From Anaerolineaceae bacterium (GTDB lineage: Bacteria; Chloroflexota; Anaerolineae; Anaerolineales; Anaerolineaceae), in NCBI GenBank assembly GCA_016841525.1, contig JAENYZ010000001.1:248001-312000 (forward strand): a stretch of 64,000 nucleotides of DNA. The letters run 5' to 3'. Positions 23,013 through 56,708 of the stretch are shown here, in pieces. Under the pieces are notes generated by a model. The model was not told where the DNA came from. It ran no database searches and saw only the letters and a list, made by a program, of their open reading frames with translations. Position numbers and translations under genes: made by a program. The stretch's first letter is position 1. Every line of letters begins with the position of its first letter.

Positions 23013-23711
23013 ATGTGGGATGAAATAATCAATATCATTCAAAGAGCTTTTACGAGTATGGCATTAACCAGTGAAGATATCTTTAACATCATCTTCTCGT
23101 TAATCGTGTCCATCATCATTGGGCTTGTTATCTCGCAAACCTATAAACTCACGCATCGCGGTGTAAATTATGAGAGCACGTTTATGACATCCCTGGTGAT
23201 GCTTGCGCCGATCGTTGCCGTCGTGATGTTTTTTATTCAGGGCAACCTGGTCTTGTCTTTGGGTTTGGTGGGGTCGTTATCGATCATCCGGTTCCGCACA
23301 CCCATCAAAGACACAAGGGACATGGTTTACCTTTTCTGGGTAATTGCTGTTGGCCTCGGTGCAGGCACCTATCATTGGGGAATTGTGATCATCTCTTCCC
23401 TGGCTATTCTGGCTTTGATCATCATTTTATATTTCTTGAATTACGGTCAATCGCAAAATCATGACTATATTCTAATCATCAGCGGTGGAAACCAGCTTGA
23501 ACAAGAAGCGATCAAGACAGTGCTGAATCAATATACAACCAATCCCAAAATGCGGTCTCAAACTAGCAACAAAGACAGCTGGGAAGTTGTTTACGAACTA
23601 CACCTGGTGAAAATCGACCCGGTTGTTGATAATTTATTAAAAGATTTAAACAACATCGAATCGATCAGCAATGTTTCACTGCTGGCACCTCAGTTGGCAT
23701 TACCTGCTTAA
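23013..23711 (+). CDS. DUF4956 membrane protein
   Basis: The first 150 residues form about four membrane segments, with the conserved G-S-L-S-I-I-R-F-R-T-P-I-K block at about residues 89-101 that marks the DUF4956 family. The C-terminal 80 residues are soluble and presumably cytoplasmic. It starts an operon with a VTC-domain gene (17 bases on) and a CotH gene (1 base further). I recall DUF4956 genes next to VTC and CotH genes in other bacteria; function is not established. A role in making or exporting a phosphorylated or polyphosphate-linked surface product is a guess. Confidence 0.85.
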   Translation: MWDEIINIIQRAFTSMALTSEDIFNIIFSLIVSIIIGLVISQTYKLTHRGVNYESTFMTSLVMLAPIVAVVMFFIQGNLVLSLGLVGSLSIIRFRTPIKDTRDMVYLFWVIAVGLGAGTYHWGIVIISSLAILALIIILYFLNYGQSQNHDYILIISGGNQLEQEAIKTVLNQYTTNPKMRSQTSNKDSWEVVYELHLVKIDPVVDNLLKDLNNIESISNVSLLAPQLALPA

Positions 23712-23728
23712 CATCATATTCCTGAGCC

Positions 23729-24472
23729 ATGAATATTGACGAGCGCTTCATTGAAACATCCCGTTTTGAACGGAAATATCGCTGCCCGATTAATCAATAT
23801 TTTTCCGTAAAAAGCGCCCTTTATCCCTATCTAAAAAAAGACCTGTTCACAGATAAATCGCCGGACAAGAAGTATTTGGTGAGAAGCTTGTATTACGACA
23901 CCTACGATTACAGGCTATTTATGGAAAAAGTCAACGGCAACAGCGACCGGATCAAATTTCGGATTCGAACCTATGGCAATGACGCTGTTGAGTCACCAGA
24001 CATTCGTGTTGAGATGAAGGTCAGGCAAGCCAACCTGACAACCAAATATGGCGCTTACATCACCTGGGAAGATTGTGACTCCTTTCTACATCATCGCCAA
24101 TGGGACAATCGTAACGACCCGGTGCTGGTGGAATTTGAACGCCAAAGCCATTTGCTAAACCTGTTCCCGAAAACCCTAGTTGAATACCAGAGAGAGGGCT
24201 ACCACACCATTGATGGGAATGATATCAGGATTACATTCGATCACAGAATAAAGAGCGCCTCCACAAATCAGCTCTTTCCGGAGCACATCTTTTGGCACAT
24301 CCACCACGACCAGATGGTTGTAATGGAGATCAAACACCAGAGCAGCATCCCTGCATGGTTGAACAAGGTCATCAAGGATTACGGATTGCGTCTAGTCGCC
24401 AACAGTAAGTTTGTTTACGGTGTTCAAGCAAGCCAACCGGATTTGATCCATCCAGCATGGAGTCATCGGTAA
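23729..24472 (+). CDS. VTC-domain protein, polyphosphate polymerase-like
   Basis: The protein starts RFERKYRC at residues 12-19 and continues with alternating basic and acidic strand motifs (IKFRIRTYG, VEMKVRQ, LVEFER, VMEIKHQ). These are the tunnel-fold residues of the VTC/CYTH superfamily that bind polyphosphate and a metal. In yeast, VTC4 makes polyphosphate from ATP; bacterial members are largely uncharacterised. Length (247) equals a single catalytic domain. It sits between DUF4956 and CotH genes, with the next ATG overlapping its last bases closely (24472/24474), so the three are almost certainly coexpressed. Confidence 0.85.
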   Translation: MNIDERFIETSRFERKYRCPINQYFSVKSALYPYLKKDLFTDKSPDKKYLVRSLYYDTYDYRLFMEKVNGNSDRIKFRIRTYGNDAVESPDIRVEMKVRQANLTTKYGAYITWEDCDSFLHHRQWDNRNDPVLVEFERQSHLLNLFPKTLVEYQREGYHTIDGNDIRITFDHRIKSASTNQLFPEHIFWHIHHDQMVVMEIKHQSSIPAWLNKVIKDYGLRLVANSKFVYGVQASQPDLIHPAWSHR

Positions 24473-24473
24473 A

Positions 24474-27281
24474 ATGACCATCACAAGGAGAGTTATCTTA
24501 TTCTTTGCCCTGGGCATGGTATTAATTGGCTTATTCATTGCGGCAACTTTTCTTGATGAACCAGTCACTTTTGCTGACCCGAATTTCGAATTTGCTGTCA
24601 GAGAAAAATTGAACTACTTTTCCAAACCGATTTACAAAAGTCAGTTATTAAGTTTTGTCCAACTGGATTTGGGCACAAAAGACATTCGGGATATTTCCGG
24701 CATTGAACATTTTAGAAATCTTGAGGTCCTCAACCTTCGAGAGAATAAGATAAGTGATGTACGTCCCCTGGGATCTCTTAAGAAATTACAAAGCCTCGAT
24801 CTAGGCTACAACCACCTGGTCGATCTTGAAACTGCTAACTTTGATCAACTAACCAATCTCAATCTGACAGCCCTAAACCTTGACCACAACACCCTCGAAT
24901 TGGAGGATAAGTCTGAAATCCGCCTCTCAGATTTGAGTGTGCTTGTAGACTTTAAAAGCCTGGAGACCTTGAGCCTGGTTGATAACCACGTCACAGATCT
25001 GATCCCCCTTACAAATTTATCAAATCTCAAAACCCTGAACCTCACAGAAAACCACATTGTAGATTTAGAAGGGCTTGAGACGCTTTCAAAGCTTGAGAAA
25101 TTAAATCTCAGGCAGAATTACTTGCAGGATATTTCCGGGATAAGAGATTTAACAGGATTAAGGTACCTGAACTTGCATTCCAATCCCGAAACAAATGATA
25201 TTTCGCCAATCAGCGGGCTTGTTAACCTTGAAACATTAATCCTCAGAAATGTGCCTATTGGCGATCAAATAGACTCCCTGGAAGCCCTGACCAATCTACA
25301 AAGATTGAACCTGAGAAATTGCGGCATCAGGGATATCTCCGTGCTCGTCCAGTTAATGTCACAGGGTGCCCTGCAGGACGACCCCGAAAATAATGTCAAA
25401 GCCTATCTGGATATCCTGGAGAACAAGATCCCCAACGATCCTCAAAAATTAAGTGAACTCAATCCTTATTGGGAAAACATCAACACCAAATACCCGCTTT
25501 ATATCAATACCTCAGTGCTCGCAGCGCCTGAATTTTCTCATGATTCTGGTTTCTATGAGGAAGCTTTTTACCTGAAACTGGAAAGCAATCTGCCAAACGC
25601 GTCAATTTATTACACCCTTGACGGCACGGTGCCATCCAGGGAATCTCATAAATATACAGGGCCGATTTTGATCAATAGCAGAACCTTTGACAGCATAGAA
25701 ACAACCAGTGCTGATGTTGTTCGGGCAAGGATCATCACGGATGATGGTCTTGAAACCAGCCTGGTCATCACCAGGTCATACCTGGTCGGACCATCAAGCA
25801 GTGAGGCATTCACATTGCCAACCATATCCCTGGTGACAGACCCTGACAACCTTTATGACCCTGAAATTGGCATTGCTACAACGGGCAATTACCGACGGCG
25901 AGGGAAAAAATGGGAGCGTCCCCTCCATATCGATTATTTCAAAACCAATGACGATCTGAGCTACACATCAGAGGTCCTGTTCAGACTTCACGGGCAAACA
26001 TCGAGGAATTTGTCTCAAAAGTCATTCAGGCTCTATGGTGAGAATAATTATGACCAGTTCGAGACCATGGACAATGAATTCTTCCCAGGTCTGATAGGAA
26101 CCGGCACGGGGATACCAATTGATCAATTTAAAACGTTGATCTTGCGAAATTCTGGCAACGATTGGAATTTGGCATTTTTCCGGGATGCCCTGATGCACAG
26201 GCTGGTTGACCACACCAGCATGGATACCCAGGCTTATCAACCCGTAAACGTTTTCTTGAATGGAAATTATTGGGGGATATTGAACGTTCGTGAGCGAATG
26301 GATGAATACTACATTGAAAATCATTATGGCATTGACCCTGACAGCGTGCTGATTTACGAGGTCAGTAAGTACGAAGACTTTTACAGCCAAAACCCTGCCG
26401 AAAATGAATTTTTAGGTCTGCTGGAATTCATAAAAGGACTGGATGATCTTAATGAAGATTTCTATGAATCCCTCGAAGAACAAATAGACATTGAGAATTT
26501 CATTGAGAACCAGATTATGTACATGTATGCCGCCAATGATGATTGGTTGGAAAACAACGTCAAATTCTGGAAGACGAAGACAGATAATCCGGATCCTGAT
26601 ACCCCCTATGGACAGGATGGGCGTTGGCGCTGGATGATCATCGATTTTGATTCAGCGTTCATAAAATATGAAAAGAACATGACGGAGTTCATCTCATTGG
26701 AAAGAGATTACACGCTAATTCTGAATACCTTGATGAAGAACCCCGATTACCAAATTGCATTTATCAACAAGTATGCTGATCTGCTAAACACGACCTTTTT
26801 ACCCGAGCGAGTCGGCTCTGAAATTGACAGCATAGCGTCAGCCCTTGAAGGGGATATCGAGAAACACATCCTTCGTTGGTCCAGCATGAACAATTCTATT
26901 GATCAATGGCATGCCAATATCGATGTGATGCGGGAATTTGCAATAAAAAGGCCGGATATTGTTCGAAGTCACATCCTTGAGACCTTCGACCTCGACGGAA
27001 CATCCGTAATCGACTTAATAAGCAATCCCGAACAGGGCTATGTCCGCATCAACTCAATTGATATTGTCAATATGACGCCGGGTATAGAAGAGCCGTCATC
27101 ATGGTCAGGAATTTATTTCAACGAGATACCAATAAGCCTGGCTGCGATTCCACAACCAGGCTATGAATTTTCACATTGGGTTGGCGTTGACCCAAGCATT
27201 GCAGAGGATGAAACAATCAGCATTCTCCTGGAAAACGACCTTGAAATCACCGCCGTTTTCGAGGAATCTGAACCAGATTAA
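24474..27281 (+). CDS. Secreted LRR-CotH kinase-domain protein
   Basis: The order is: an N-terminal signal/anchor segment (about residues 7-25); leucine-rich repeats of internalin type (about 60-285, repeated L-x-x-L-x-L-x-x-N-x-I/L-x-D); a chitobiase-C-like strand domain containing YYTLDGTVPS (about 377-435); a CotH domain (about 440-800) with RLHGQTSR, LRNSGNDWN and the acidic WMIIDFDSAF; and a C-terminal InlB-like repeat with FSHWVG. CotH proteins are atypical kinases that phosphorylate secreted proteins. The gene is the last of the DUF4956-VTC-CotH unit and converges on the next gene with a 4-base stop-to-stop overlap. Its likely place is the cell surface; its substrate is unknown. Confidence 0.85.
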   Translation: MTITRRVILFFALGMVLIGLFIAATFLDEPVTFADPNFEFAVREKLNYFSKPIYKSQLLSFVQLDLGTKDIRDISGIEHFRNLEVLNLRENKISDVRPLGSLKKLQSLDLGYNHLVDLETANFDQLTNLNLTALNLDHNTLELEDKSEIRLSDLSVLVDFKSLETLSLVDNHVTDLIPLTNLSNLKTLNLTENHIVDLEGLETLSKLEKLNLRQNYLQDISGIRDLTGLRYLNLHSNPETNDISPISGLVNLETLILRNVPIGDQIDSLEALTNLQRLNLRNCGIRDISVLVQLMSQGALQDDPENNVKAYLDILENKIPNDPQKLSELNPYWENINTKYPLYINTSVLAAPEFSHDSGFYEEAFYLKLESNLPNASIYYTLDGTVPSRESHKYTGPILINSRTFDSIETTSADVVRARIITDDGLETSLVITRSYLVGPSSSEAFTLPTISLVTDPDNLYDPEIGIATTGNYRRRGKKWERPLHIDYFKTNDDLSYTSEVLFRLHGQTSRNLSQKSFRLYGENNYDQFETMDNEFFPGLIGTGTGIPIDQFKTLILRNSGNDWNLAFFRDALMHRLVDHTSMDTQAYQPVNVFLNGNYWGILNVRERMDEYYIENHYGIDPDSVLIYEVSKYEDFYSQNPAENEFLGLLEFIKGLDDLNEDFYESLEEQIDIENFIENQIMYMYAANDDWLENNVKFWKTKTDNPDPDTPYGQDGRWRWMIIDFDSAFIKYEKNMTEFISLERDYTLILNTLMKNPDYQIAFINKYADLLNTTFLPERVGSEIDSIASALEGDIEKHILRWSSMNNSIDQWHANIDVMREFAIKRPDIVRSHILETFDLDGTSVIDLISNPEQGYVRINSIDIVNMTPGIEEPSSWSGIYFNEIPISLAAIPQPGYEFSHWVGVDPSIAEDETISILLENDLEITAVFEESEPD

Positions 27282-53538: not shown

Positions 53539-54723
53539 ATGCCAATATTAGAAATCATCACAATCGGTACCGAACTATTACTGGGTGAAATCACAGACAC
53601 CAATTCAACCTACATCGCTCGAACACTGAGAGATCATGGAATAGACATATTTAGAATAATCACAATCGGTGACAACCCCACCAGGATCGCATCGACAATC
53701 AGTGAGTCCCTGACTCGGGCAGATATTATCATCACAACAGGAGGGCTTGGTCCTACCGTTGATGACCCCACTCGCCTTGCAGTTGCAAAAGCTACAGACC
53801 GTGAACTGGTATTTGATCCCAAGCTTTGGGAAGAAATCCTGAACCATTTCACAGTCTACGGGAGGCAACCAACAGACAACAACCGCCGCCAGGCATTCAT
53901 TCCAGAAGGCGCAATTGAAGTTCACAATCCAGTAGGCACTGCCCCGTGCTTCATTGTTGAGGTCGGGAATTCCTGCGTCATTTCTTTGCCTGGCGTTCCC
54001 CGTGAGATGGAATTCATTTTACATGAATCGATCATCCCCTATTTGAGCCAGAAATACGTTCTAAAGAATCAAATCATTAAAGCGACTGTTATGCACGCAG
54101 CCTCCATCGGTGAATCAATGATCGACGAGATCATTGATGATCTTGAACAAATGTCAAACCCCACAGTAGGTTTGCTTGCCCACCCAGGTCAGGTGGATAT
54201 CAGGGTCACCGCTAAAGCAGAATCTTTAGATGAAGCTAAAAGATTAAGCGACCCCATCACCCAGGAACTGAAAGCCCGATTAGGCGAAAACATTTACGGA
54301 CAGGACGAGGAAACCTTAGCATTCGTCATAAGCCAAATCACTAATCAACATGGTATCAAAATCGGGGTATTAGAATACGGACTTGACGGAAAATTCACTG
54401 AACAGTTGAAATTAGGACAGCCTGACCAGCTTCATGCAAGTATATTGAATGAAAAACCCGAAAACATAATCGATTTTGAAAGAACCTTAGACGATTTCAA
54501 AGAGGATGCTGGCTGTGATGTTTGGTTGGGGATTGCAGTCAATCTAAACGAAGCCAACACAGCGCACTTGTATTTTCAAAATTCAAGACAAAAAGTATCC
54601 AAAACTCGCAAATATGGCGGTCCAAAAGAATATATCCCCTTATGGGCACAAAATATTGGTTTAGATTTTTTACGACGGCAGTTGATTACAAGTATCAAAA
54701 ATGAAGAGATAGGAGAAAAATGA
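53539..54723 (+). CDS. cinA: CinA-like protein with degenerate C-terminal domain
   Basis: The N-terminal MoaB/COG1058 domain is complete: IGTELLLGEITDTN, then ITTGGLGPTVDDPT and L-P-G-V-P-R-E-M. The middle K-H domain is present. The C-terminal domain, which in active CinA deamidates nicotinamide mononucleotide through an A-E-S-C-T-G-G serine, reads instead L-E-Y-G-L-D-G and is shortened. So deamidase activity is doubtful while the ADP-ribose pyrophosphatase part may remain. The gene overlaps the fusion protein gene by ATGA. ATG 53539 has GAGGAG upstream. Confidence 0.88.
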   Translation: MPILEIITIGTELLLGEITDTNSTYIARTLRDHGIDIFRIITIGDNPTRIASTISESLTRADIIITTGGLGPTVDDPTRLAVAKATDRELVFDPKLWEEILNHFTVYGRQPTDNNRRQAFIPEGAIEVHNPVGTAPCFIVEVGNSCVISLPGVPREMEFILHESIIPYLSQKYVLKNQIIKATVMHAASIGESMIDEIIDDLEQMSNPTVGLLAHPGQVDIRVTAKAESLDEAKRLSDPITQELKARLGENIYGQDEETLAFVISQITNQHGIKIGVLEYGLDGKFTEQLKLGQPDQLHASILNEKPENIIDFERTLDDFKEDAGCDVWLGIAVNLNEANTAHLYFQNSRQKVSKTRKYGGPKEYIPLWAQNIGLDFLRRQLITSIKNEEIGEK

Positions 54724-56708
54724 AACAAGCTGATTGGATTTTCCATAACGCTATTGTGCTCACCATGGACAAGGATTTCAATATCTATGACCCTGGTGCG
54801 GTTGTTGTAGAAGGTGACAGCATTGTTGCTGTCGGCCATGAGGAAAAAATACTAAAAGAATTCCAGTCCGACGATCTTGTCGATTGCAAACAAAAAATCC
54901 TGATGCCCGGGTTAATCAATGCTCACACGCATGTCCCCATGACCCTTCTTCGAGGACTGGCTGACGATCTGCGCCTTGATGTATGGTTAATGGGCTACAT
55001 GATGCCCGTTGAGCGTGAATTTGTCTCGCCGGAATTCGTTCGTTTGGGTACAAAATTAGCCTGTGCCGAGTGCATTCGCTCCGGTGTAACAACATTTGTG
55101 GACATGTATTATTATGAGTCTGATGTGGCAAAAGCCACTGCAGAGGCAGGCTTAAGAGCCATTTGTTCACAATCTGTCCTTAAATTCCCTTCTCCTGATG
55201 CCACATACTACGAAGAAGCATTGGCTGATGCTGAGGAATTTATCAAAACCTGGAAAGATCATCCCCTGATCGTTCCTTCAATCGCACCGCATGCGCCATA
55301 CACTTGCACTGATGAAATTTATCGTGCGAGTACGGAACTTGCCGTTAAATACGACGTTCCGCTGCACACCCACATAGCAGAAACAGCCGGTGAAGTTGAG
55401 GATATCCGAGAGGAATTTGGCATGCCTGTTGTGCCATATGTAAGAAAGCGCGGCATTTTTGATGCAAAAGTAATAGCTGCACACTGTGTGCACATCGATG
55501 AAGGTGAAATGCGAGAACTGAAAAAACACAAGGCTGGCGTGGCGCATAATCCTTCATCCAACCTGAAATTGGCTTCAGGTTTTGCAAATGTCACCAGAAT
55601 GCTCGAGTTGGGGGTGAACGTCGGGATTGGCACTGATGGCCCAGCTTCTAATAATGATTTGGATATGGTTGAGGAAATGCGGTTAGCTTCGATGATTGCA
55701 AAAGCCTCCTCTGGTGATCCAACTGCCTTGCCCGCCAGGCAAACGCTGGCAATGGCAACCAGTATGGGTGCAAAAGCCGTACACATGAACCACATTACAG
55801 GCTCTCTTGTCCCCGGCAAGCGTGCAGATATGATCCTTATCGACATCAATAAATTGCATAATTCGCCAAAATTTGAACGTGACCAGGAAGGACTTTACGC
55901 ACAGGTTATTTATGCATCAAAATCAACAGATATCAGCGATATGATGGTCAATGGAAAGTGGTTAATGCGAGATCATGTTTTGCTAACCCTTGACGAAGCG
56001 CAGTTAATGAACGAAGCGCAAGATTATGCCAAGAAAATCGATGCATTCTTGATTGAACGTGAGCAATCTGTTCTGTCCAAACTGGTTGCCATCGGCGGCG
56101 CAATGCAAGAAGAGAGCTTTGAAGTTCAGGCAAAAGTCCGCATTACAGATCCAGATAAAATCATTGAAGCCTTGGATCAGGATGGCGTTGATATCATCTA
56201 TACCCGCCATTACCATGAATATGACACCTATTTCTACTTCGATAAAAAGAAACAAGGGCTTTTACGTTACAGGGAGGATGAGTTCATCGGCAAAAAAGGT
56301 GAAGTCACCAATGTGCGCGGGCGCTTAACCCTTGTTGGTGTGACTCGTGAAGCTTCCTTTGAACGAGATGTGATGCTCTCACGCAGTCGGTATTATGCGC
56401 CTGCGACCCATTCTCTACGCTTTTATCGGGAATATTTCGAGCCAGCCAGCGAAATTGACATCGAAAAGGATCGAAAACGGTTCAAAATTCAATATAAAGG
56501 TGTTGATTTCTACATCAACATTGATACGCTCATCAATCCTGATTTGGGTCATTTCCTTGAGGTAAAAAGCCGGACCTGGAGCCGTGAAGATGCAGAGCTG
56601 AAATCCAGTTTAATTGCGGAATTGATCGAGTATCTTGGTGCGTCCTCTGACATGGCAGAAACACATGACTATATCGAAATCGTCAAAAAATACTTAAAAA
56701 ACAAATAG
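54720..56708 (+). CDS. Amidohydrolase-CYTH domain fusion protein
   Basis: Residues 1-450 form an amidohydrolase of the S-adenosylhomocysteine/guanine deaminase (MtaD/SsnA/TrzN) type. The metal ligands are H69-x-H71, H218 in HTHIAE, H255 in AAHCVHID and D306 in GTDGPASNND. A linker follows, and residues about 466-662 form a CYTH domain. There the usual E-x-E-x-K reads E468-V-Q-A-K472, R516/R518 are in LLRYRED, and E614-V-K616 is in FLEVKSR. CYTH domains bind triphosphate groups (adenylate cyclase class IV, thiamine triphosphatase, polyphosphatase). Loss of one E weakens metal binding. A nucleoside-type deaminase joined to a triphosphate-binding fold is unusual. It is cotranscribed with cinA and glgA. 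Confidence 0.86.
   Translation: MKQADWIFHNAIVLTMDKDFNIYDPGAVVVEGDSIVAVGHEEKILKEFQSDDLVDCKQKILMPGLINAHTHVPMTLLRGLADDLRLDVWLMGYMMPVEREFVSPEFVRLGTKLACAECIRSGVTTFVDMYYYESDVAKATAEAGLRAICSQSVLKFPSPDATYYEEALADAEEFIKTWKDHPLIVPSIAPHAPYTCTDEIYRASTELAVKYDVPLHTHIAETAGEVEDIREEFGMPVVPYVRKRGIFDAKVIAAHCVHIDEGEMRELKKHKAGVAHNPSSNLKLASGFANVTRMLELGVNVGIGTDGPASNNDLDMVEEMRLASMIAKASSGDPTALPARQTLAMATSMGAKAVHMNHITGSLVPGKRADMILIDINKLHNSPKFERDQEGLYAQVIYASKSTDISDMMVNGKWLMRDHVLLTLDEAQLMNEAQDYAKKIDAFLIEREQSVLSKLVAIGGAMQEESFEVQAKVRITDPDKIIEALDQDGVDIIYTRHYHEYDTYFYFDKKKQGLLRYREDEFIGKKGEVTNVRGRLTLVGVTREASFERDVMLSRSRYYAPATHSLRFYREYFEPASEIDIEKDRKRFKIQYKGVDFYINIDTLINPDLGHFLEVKSRTWSREDAELKSSLIAELIEYLGASSDMAETHDYIEIVKKYLKNK

What the first reader, a model, noticed from the sequence alone, without database searches (positions are those of the whole stretch)
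54720..56708. Amidohydrolase fused to a CYTH triphosphate-binding domain
A metal-dependent deaminase-type domain with all ligands intact is followed by a CYTH domain with a changed E-x-E-x-K (E-V-Q-A-K). CYTH enzymes act on triphosphates or cyclise ATP; deaminases of this family act on nucleosides and heterocycles. The fusion may couple removal of a nucleotide or triphosphate with base deamination, or use CYTH as a sensor for polyphosphate or ppp-nucleotides. It is embedded between cinA (ADP-ribose/NMN chemistry) and glycogen synthase.
Basis: partly seen in the sequence, partly recalled or inferred. Interest (0 to 1): 0.72.

Follow-up and report, generated by a model that had tools for sequence, protein, structure and literature searches.

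The report
Nucleoside deaminase fused to triphosphate-binding tunnel
A bacterial enzyme that probably strips an amino group from adenosine-like molecules is joined to a barrel-shaped domain that normally cuts triphosphates but here has lost part of its cutting site, so it may work as a sensor that controls the enzyme.

Summary
The ORF at 54720-56708 (+) is one 662-residue protein: an MTA/SAH-type amidohydrolase (1-440), a helical linker, and a CYTH/TTM domain (about 462-662). It is no sequencing error. The C-terminal domain occurs in 182 of 298 genomes drawn from the class, in families of the phylum outside that class, and rarely in two other phyla (2 of 195 and 3 of 396 genomes). No solo copy was seen. 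All 36 fused deaminases sampled fall on one side of a branch (SH-aLRT 100). The domain's AF2 model has the tunnel fold (best PDB match Z 19.2).
By homology this keeps one metal-1 glutamate and most phosphate-binding basic residues but loses two of three metal-2 (catalytic) ligands. I favour a deaminase carrying a triphosphate-binding, hydrolysis-poor tunnel domain as regulatory sensor. That step is inferred; no activity was measured. The cinA/glycogen-synthase context is local. Nucleoside phosphorylases lie beside or near the gene in seven of 48 loci. Eight literature searches showed no description of this architecture.

The parts
54720..56708 (+). Whole gene, 662 aa, deaminase-TTM fusion
   Evidence: homologues of similar length
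54720..56039 (+). Amidohydrolase domain, residues 1-440, MTA/SAH deaminase-like
   Evidence: Pfam Amidohydro_1 4.7e-73; nearest solved structure 4f0r, labelled 5-methylthioadenosine/S-adenosylhomocysteine deaminase, E 3.7e-91
54924..54932 (+). H69-T-H71 metal motif; further active-site residues H191, H218, E221, H255, D306
   Evidence: 75 of 75 rows at each, H69 74 of 75 plus one X; roles recalled from the amidohydrolase superfamily
54978..54998 (+). Loop residues 87-93 (D87, V88 75 of 75; G92, Y93 74 of 75 in fused forms), mostly different in 19 solo deaminases (Y93 kept in 6 of 19)
   Evidence: it overlaps the low-confidence loop of the full-length AF2 model (83-93)
56040..56102 (+). Linker residues 441-461 with R447 (73/75), E448 (74/75), K454 (75/75)
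   Evidence: helices 426-448 and 451-459 in the model
56103..56705 (+). CYTH/TTM tunnel domain, residues 462-662
   Evidence: AF2 pLDDT 87.1; PDB 2een Z 19.2, 7ns9 Z 18.0; hhalign to canonical CYTH E 8e-7
56121..56135 (+). E468-V-Q470-A-K472: altered ExExK hallmark
   Evidence: E, Q, K each 75 of 75; aligned with EREIK of the canonical CYTH profile
56223..56231 (+). D502-T-Y504: DxY motif, retained
   Evidence: D and Y 75 of 75; DxY role from PMC8233210 section 8; the correspondence is by motif, not by a structural alignment seen residue by residue
56265..56273 (+). R516-Y-R518: RxR triphosphate-binding pair, retained
   Evidence: 75 of 75 each; motif role from PMC8233210 section 10; aligned with RIR
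56466..56480 (+). K583-D-R585-K-R587: basic strand
   Evidence: 75 of 75 each; K583/R585 aligned with EKYR of canonical CYTH
56559..56579 (+). E614-V-K616-S-R618-T619-W620: C-terminal ExE changed to ExK, followed by RTW
   Evidence: E614, K616, T619, W620 75 of 75, R618 74 of 75; aligned with EIE
53539..54723 (+). cinA-like neighbour, overlaps the fusion gene start by 4 bases
   Evidence: the upstream adjacency was found in L032, L033, L034, L042, L047
56712..58184 (+). Glycogen/starch synthase neighbour
   Evidence: the adjacency was found in L032, L033, L034, L036, L042

Best explanation
An enzyme of Anaerolineae and related Chloroflexota, usually one copy per genome. The N-terminal half deaminates an adenosine-type nucleoside (5'-methylthioadenosine, 5'-deoxyadenosine or adenosine; S-adenosylhomocysteine less likely) to the inosine form, which a nucleoside phosphorylase then splits. 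The C-terminal TTM domain binds a triphosphate-type anion (ATP or another NTP, tripolyphosphate or polyphosphate) with one metal at site 1, and hydrolyses it poorly or not at all because the catalytic metal-2 site has become Glu/Gln/Lys. Binding is transmitted through the conserved linker helices, and perhaps the fusion-specific loop 87-93, to set deaminase activity according to nucleotide or phosphate status. SHOWN by computation: the fusion, its conservation, one origin not contradicted by the tree, the tunnel fold (predicted), the retained phosphate-binding residues, and the altered metal-2 residues. INFERRED: deaminase substrate, ligand, lack of hydrolysis, and coupling.
For: No solo tunnel domain was seen; short frames lie at contig ends where checked. 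The 36 fused deaminases lie on one side of a branch, SH-aLRT 100. Fold. E468, Q470, K472, D502, Y504, R516, R518, K583, R585, R587, E614 and K616 are each 75 of 75, so the tunnel is under strong selection and not decaying. Control: seven canonical CYTH proteins of the class keep Glu at both changed positions, but they were picked with a filter that favours E-x-E; in an unfiltered look at all 26 non-fused CYTH loci held, read by eye show the second Glu of the first motif and 23 a C-terminal E-x-E, none of those read shows Gln or E-x-K there, and three at each motif could not be read. In SaTTM, E7 and E135 hold metal 1 and E5, E7 and E137 are the ligands of the two-calcium state (PMC8233210 section 7); in ygiF the second metal is held by Glu-4, Glu-6 and Glu-162 (PMC4641920). 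These map to E468, Q470, E614 and K616 (alignment). [quoted passage not shown] Linker residues are conserved, and four of eleven fusion-specific deaminase positions cluster at 87-93. A PYNP-type or PNP_UDP_1 phosphorylase lies beside or near the gene in 7 of 48 loci. The window's genome encodes an MTA phosphorylase and two purine nucleoside phosphorylases above cut-off; SAH hydrolase is present in 57 of 60 class genomes, this one included, which makes SAH the less needed substrate.
Against: No ligand, activity or coupling was tested. Q470 also replaces one of the two metal-1 ligands of SaTTM, so even metal-1 binding could be altered. Plant TTM1/2 lack ExExK and ExE yet are reported to prefer pyrophosphate as substrate (PMC8233210), so hydrolysis cannot be ruled out from motifs. 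The lysine K69 of SaTTM has no obvious counterpart. Interdomain geometry is untested (no error estimate available; full-length pTM 0.72). The genome's MTA phosphorylase means MTA need not pass through deamination. The gene context is mostly variable, and 41 of 48 loci showed no nucleoside phosphorylase in the limited look taken. No NCBIfam equivalog cut-off was met by the deaminase part (25 of 64 matches shown).
Confidence: 0.42

Rival explanations
1. Bifunctional enzyme: the tunnel domain is still a phosphohydrolase, using one metal or with Lys616 doing the work of metal 2, on PPPi, PPi or a nucleotide, and the deaminase acts on the nucleoside released.
For: Phosphate-binding residues are retained. 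TTM1/2-type proteins lack the hallmark motifs yet are reported to prefer PPi (PMC8233210). Fusion of successive steps is common (general knowledge).
Against: Metal-2 ligands are replaced in 75 of 75. Mutations of Glu-2, Glu-4 and Glu-169 to Asp or Ala strongly reduce AtTTM3 activity (PMC4641920).
Confidence: 0.25
2. Docking: the tunnel holds the phosphate tail of the deaminase's own substrate, such as ATP, a triphosphorylated adenosine derivative or polyphosphate-bound material, so the enzyme deaminates a nucleotide rather than a free nucleoside.
For: Both domains would act on one molecule. The deaminase has a fusion-specific loop at 87-93.
Against: The nearest solved relative is labelled a nucleoside-level deaminase, and the ribose-binding Glu (E98, role recalled) is 75 of 75. 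Neighbours in 7 of 48 loci are nucleoside phosphorylases. In TTMs the triphosphate lies inside the tunnel, away from a second active site (inference).
Confidence: 0.12
3. The tunnel domain is only an oligomerisation or stability module whose ligand is incidental.
For: Divergence of the domain is higher than that of the deaminase (mean pairwise identity 0.48 against 0.58). SaTTM forms a dimer (section heading).
Against: The charged residues of the tunnel are invariant, which a purely structural module would not need.
Confidence: 0.12
4. The tunnel domain is a class IV adenylate cyclase, as NCBIfam's weak cyaB match suggests.
For: TIGR00318 cyaB matches 11 of 16 members at E up to 1 (best 1.7e-5).
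Against: The window protein is below the curated cut-off. The HF motif expected six and five residues before the first Glu is absent: no H among the six commonest residues at 462, no F among those at 463. The first Arg of RxR is kept in 75 of 75, where cyclases have a small residue. The second C-terminal residue is Lys rather than Ala.
Confidence: 0.03
5. Assembly or frame error joining two genes.
For: None.
Against: Same architecture in 75 full-length rows from many assemblies.
Confidence: 0.005

Closest known systems
MTA/SAH deaminase of the amidohydrolase superfamily (PDB 4f0r; TM0936, PDB 1p1m/2plm)
   Same: Sequence homology over the whole domain, active-site residues, and a Glu at 98
   Different: C-terminal tunnel domain; loop 87-93 signature; Gln (64) or Glu (11 of 75) at the position of TM0936 Arg136 (position read by eye, counts; role of Arg136 and Arg148 in SAH binding recalled); no NCBIfam equivalog cut-off met among the 25 of 64 matches shown
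SaTTM and archaeal CYTH proteins (7ns9, 2een)
   Same: Predicted tunnel fold (Z 18-19), DxY, RxR, KxR and the first Glu of both acidic motifs
   Different: ExQxK for ExExK, ExK for ExE, extra conserved R587, R618 and RTW; fused to a deaminase
Vtc4/VTC polyphosphate polymerase domain (PF09359)
   Same: Vtc4p is described as lacking the metal-2 site; four VTC proteins of this class carry a C-terminal E-x-K (4 of 4 aligned, but picked with that motif as a filter), as does the window's own
   Different: No profile-profile match (E 0.08 over 10 columns); the first-strand motif differs; the resemblance is an analogy only
Known CYTH fusions (CHAD, HD hydrolase, exopolyphosphatase, nucleotidyl kinase)
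   Same: CYTH joined to a domain of nucleotide or phosphate metabolism (list in PMC8233210, passage)
   Different: None of the listed partners is an amidohydrolase or deaminase

Membership tests
CYTH/TTM superfamily (fold level) | Eight-stranded tunnel fold | tested here: met
   AF2 domain model; PDB 2een Z 19.2 over 170 residues, 7ns9 Z 18.0 over 169
CYTH/TTM superfamily (fold level) | Sequence homology to canonical CYTH | tested here: met
   hhalign prob 91.6, E 8e-7; 7 of 16 relatives hit PF01928 at E up to 1; nine fused frames pass its cut-off; the window protein itself does not match
CYTH hydrolase (catalytic TTM) | ExExK hallmark | tested here: not met
   ExQxK in 75 of 75
CYTH hydrolase (catalytic TTM) | Second Glu of the C-terminal ExE (metal 2) | tested here: not met
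   Lys in 75 of 75
CYTH hydrolase (catalytic TTM) | Triphosphatase activity | not testable with these tools
   needs protein
Class IV adenylate cyclase | HF motif before ExExK, small residue for the first Arg of RxR, Ala for the second Glu of ExE | tested here: not met
   M462/Q463 variable without H/F among the six commonest, R516 75 of 75, K616 75 of 75 against the rules in PMC8233210 section 10
Thiamine triphosphatase | W/YxRxR | tested here: not met
   Residue 514 is R in 58 and W in 2 of 75 rows, L in the window protein
MTA/SAH-type deaminase (amidohydrolase superfamily) | HxH, His and Asp ligands with catalytic Glu and His (roles recalled) | tested here: met
MTA/SAH-type deaminase (amidohydrolase superfamily) | Curated NCBIfam equivalog score | tested here: not met
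   Best match NF006549 452.1 bits against a cut-off of 540; none of the 25 of 64 matches shown reaches its cut-off
MTA/SAH-type deaminase (amidohydrolase superfamily) | Deaminates MTA, SAH, 5'-deoxyadenosine or adenosine | not testable with these tools
   needs assay
VTC polyphosphate polymerase | Sequence homology to PF09359 | tested here: not met
   PF09359 not among the families matched, no hhalign match to four VTC proteins

The most novel reading that the evidence does not exclude
A TTM/CYTH domain has been recast as a dedicated sensor. Its catalytic metal site was exchanged for Gln and Lys in an ancestor of this clade, and it has since been held invariant as a triphosphate or polyphosphate switch that gates an adenosine-nucleoside deaminase. 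This would link salvage of SAM by-products to the cell's energy or phosphate state in much of a bacterial class and beyond.
Probability: 0.33. Interest if true: 0.68.

Novelty: new variant of a known kind. Interest (0 to 1): 0.52.

Why it matters
CYTH domains are usually read as enzymes, and the weak database match here would name this one an adenylate cyclase. A widespread family in which the catalytic metal site is invariantly replaced while the phosphate-binding tunnel is kept would give a natural case of a TTM used as a binding module in a metabolic enzyme. It would also suggest that deamination of adenosine-type nucleosides is controlled by a triphosphate in Chloroflexota. Both points can be tested with one recombinant protein.

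Tried and rejected
Sequencing error: rejected. Separate split genes co-occurring: sought with the tunnel domain alone and the deaminase alone. No solo tunnel domain was seen. Short frames: G423 runs to its contig end, and by their coordinates so do G004, G021 and G109 and G225 (538 codons); G086 (621 codons) was not followed up, though the tunnel domain matches in that genome. In the class draw, hits at 44% identity or less lie mostly in frames of 430-550 codons (two of 591 and 652 not examined); in other phyla solo deaminases reach 47%.

VTC relationship: suggested by the shared E-x-K, rejected at sequence level. Adenylate cyclase and thiamine triphosphatase: rejected by motif. Mobile or viral origin: no plasmid match and no viral match. 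Gene context as a guide to function: cinA upstream and glgA downstream are confined to close relatives (a cinA homologue also lies about 1.3 kb downstream in L082); CoaE follows the gene in six loci (L049, L150, L152, L155, L157, L158; identified by Pfam in L152, the others by blastp to it); it gave no mechanism. A cytidine-deaminase motif scan of neighbours found none. Direct phmmer or hmmsearch of the domain against PDB sequences found nothing meaningful. Absence of other folds from the structure list is not used as evidence.

Literature: searches returned no paper; 18 one, unrelated by title; others (30 of 53 listed; 6 of 6; 15 of 797; 10 of 20; 12 of 20; none with all three terms) were seen as listings. 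None of the titles seen describes this fusion. PMC8233210 was read in its outline with abstract, sections 7, 8 and 10, and passages; PMC4641920 in its outline, section 17 part 1 of 3, and passages; PMC6302742 in passages. Subscription papers are not held, so absence from print is not shown.
Full report
WHAT IS THERE. The window holds one open frame at 54720-56708 (+), 662 codons. Residues 60-415 are Amidohydro_1 (E 4.7e-73). The nearest solved relative is 4f0r, labelled 5-methylthioadenosine/S-adenosylhomocysteine deaminase (E 3.7e-91). It turns out right. Among 16 sequences cut to the C-terminal part, 7 match PF01928 at E up to 1 (best 2.1e-7) and 11 match cyaB at E up to 1 (best 1.7e-5). A profile of the family aligns with canonical CYTH proteins of the same class at E 8e-7. 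An AF2 model of the domain (mean pLDDT 87.1) matches the tunnel proteins 2een (Z 19.2, 2.3 A over 170 residues) and SaTTM 7ns9 (Z 18.0, 2.2 A over 169). The full-length model has lower confidence (pLDDT 84.4, pTM 0.72), and no interdomain error estimate was available.

IT IS NOT AN ARTEFACT. The C-terminal domain was found at E up to 0.001 in 182 of 298 genomes drawn from the class (122 of 190 good-quality ones); record titles of the loci point to Anaerolineae. In a phylum-wide draw 62 of 301 genomes had it, including families outside the class; the one short frame there (347 codons, G423) runs to its contig end. Elsewhere it is rare: 2 of 195 genomes in the phylum of G565 and 3 of 396 in the phylum of G568. 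Those five also carry the amidohydrolase part; the three are 60-62% identical to the window protein, so transfer or misplaced contigs are both possible. Searching 120 class genomes with the deaminase half alone, hits of 47% identity or more lie in frames of 655 codons or longer, apart from G004, G021 and G109 at contig ends and G086 at 621 codons; hits at 44% or less lie mostly in frames of 430-550 codons. In other phyla solo deaminases reach 47% identity. A tree of 53 deaminase domains puts all 36 fused ones on one side of a branch with SH-aLRT support 100, and the 17 solo ones on the other (quick method). One fusion event followed by descent and occasional transfer is the simplest reading (inference).

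THE TUNNEL SITE. I aligned 75 full-length fusion proteins from the loci; fused loci fetched later were not added. The rows are not all independent: L031 and L078 are the same gene of G228, L002 is the window gene and L032 is 97% identical to it. Partial rows (L036, L047, L048, L149, L160) were left out. Invariant in 75 of 75 are E468, Q470, K472, D502, Y504, R516, R518, E519, T537, R567, F568, E571, Y572, K583, R585, R587, D602, E614, K616, T619, W620, D624 and A625. The alignment places Q470 on the second Glu of ExExK and K616 on the second Glu of the C-terminal ExE. As a control, seven canonical CYTH proteins from the same class keep Glu at both places; these were picked with a filter that favours E-x-E, so I looked at all 26 non-fused CYTH loci held without that filter (read by eye): 23 show the second Glu of the first motif and 23 a C-terminal E-x-E, none of those read shows Gln or E-x-K, and three at each motif could not be read.

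In SaTTM, E7 and E135 hold metal 1, and E5, E7 and E137 bind the two calcium ions of the inhibited complex, with E137 assigned to metal 2 (PMC8233210 sections 7 and 10). In ygiF the second metal is held by Glu-4, Glu-6 and Glu-162 (PMC4641920). Transferred to this family, metal 1 keeps E614 but has Gln for E7, while metal 2 keeps only E468. The retained DxY, RxR and KxR residues are those named as placing the triphosphate. [quoted passage not shown] A preserved, strongly selected phosphate tunnel with an exchanged catalytic metal site is the main reason I prefer a binding role. Against it, plant TTM1/2 lack both motifs and are still reported to prefer pyrophosphate as substrate.

COUPLING. Linker residues R447 (73/75), E448 (74/75) and K454 (75/75) are conserved. 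Of eleven deaminase positions conserved in fused forms but mostly different in 19 solo ones, four cluster at 87-93 (D87, V88, G92, Y93). That loop overlaps the least certain stretch of the full-length model (83-93). Mean pairwise identity is 0.58 for the deaminase and 0.48 for the tunnel part, with rank correlation 0.75. These facts fit domain communication but do not prove it.

SUBSTRATE. The active-site residues are intact. At the place of TM0936 Arg136, which I recall as binding the SAH carboxylate, the family has Gln (64) or Glu (11) (position read by eye, counts). SAH hydrolase is present in 57 of 60 class genomes including this one, so SAH is less likely the main substrate. This genome also encodes an MTA phosphorylase over its cut-off and two purine nucleoside phosphorylases over theirs, so MTA, 5'-deoxyadenosine and adenosine all remain possible. 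Of 48 loci examined, some too short to show both neighbours, a PYNP-type nucleoside phosphorylase lies next to or near the gene in L037, L038, L040, L069, L074 and L075 (78 to 1,095 bases away), and a PNP_UDP_1-family protein lies 89 bases downstream in L076. The PNP family was looked for only among close same-strand downstream genes, so its count is a lower bound. PMC6302742 (passages) describes MTA and 5'-deoxyadenosine deamination followed by phosphorolysis in other organisms.

Right: the fusion, the tunnel domain, the altered motif and the sensor idea. Less supported: removal of a triphosphate as the coupled step. Not supported: functional meaning of the cinA/glycogen-synthase setting, which is limited to close relatives, and NMN chemistry, since only MoCF_biosynth and CinA_KH were detected in the neighbour.

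STANDING. It is a new, widespread architecture of known parts. None of the titles seen in eight searches of open-licence full text describes it (four of the listings were partial), and the partner list in PMC8233210 has no amidohydrolase. Some members pass Pfam's CYTH cut-off (nine fused frames), so automated architecture tables may already list it. I classify it as a new variant of a known kind.

Noticed in passing
window 23013-27281: A VTC-domain protein (23729-24472; PF09359 hit in window coordinates 23762-24430) sits between a small membrane protein (23013-23711) and a large leucine-rich-repeat protein (24474-27281); the last two were named by eye only.
   Followed up: no
window 53539-54723: The CinA-like neighbour has MoCF_biosynth and CinA_KH domains but no Pfam hit over residues 255-394, where the NMN deamidase domain would be expected.
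   Followed up: partly
L001:1303-1944 (G000 contig C9): The window's genome has a separate canonical CYTH protein (EREIK, EIE motifs) whose frame overlaps the start of an ORF that looks Nudix-like by eye.
   Followed up: partly
L049, L150, L152, L155, L157, L158: In six loci of the fusion family a CoaE-like gene (dephospho-CoA kinase by Pfam in L152, the others by similarity to it) follows the fusion gene with gaps from -58 to 21 bases.
   Followed up: partly
L045 and L046: Fusion genes in assemblies titled Deltaproteobacteria and Bdellovibrio branch first among the fused rows as drawn; only 2 of 195 genomes of that phylum carry the domain, which suggests transfer.
   Followed up: partly
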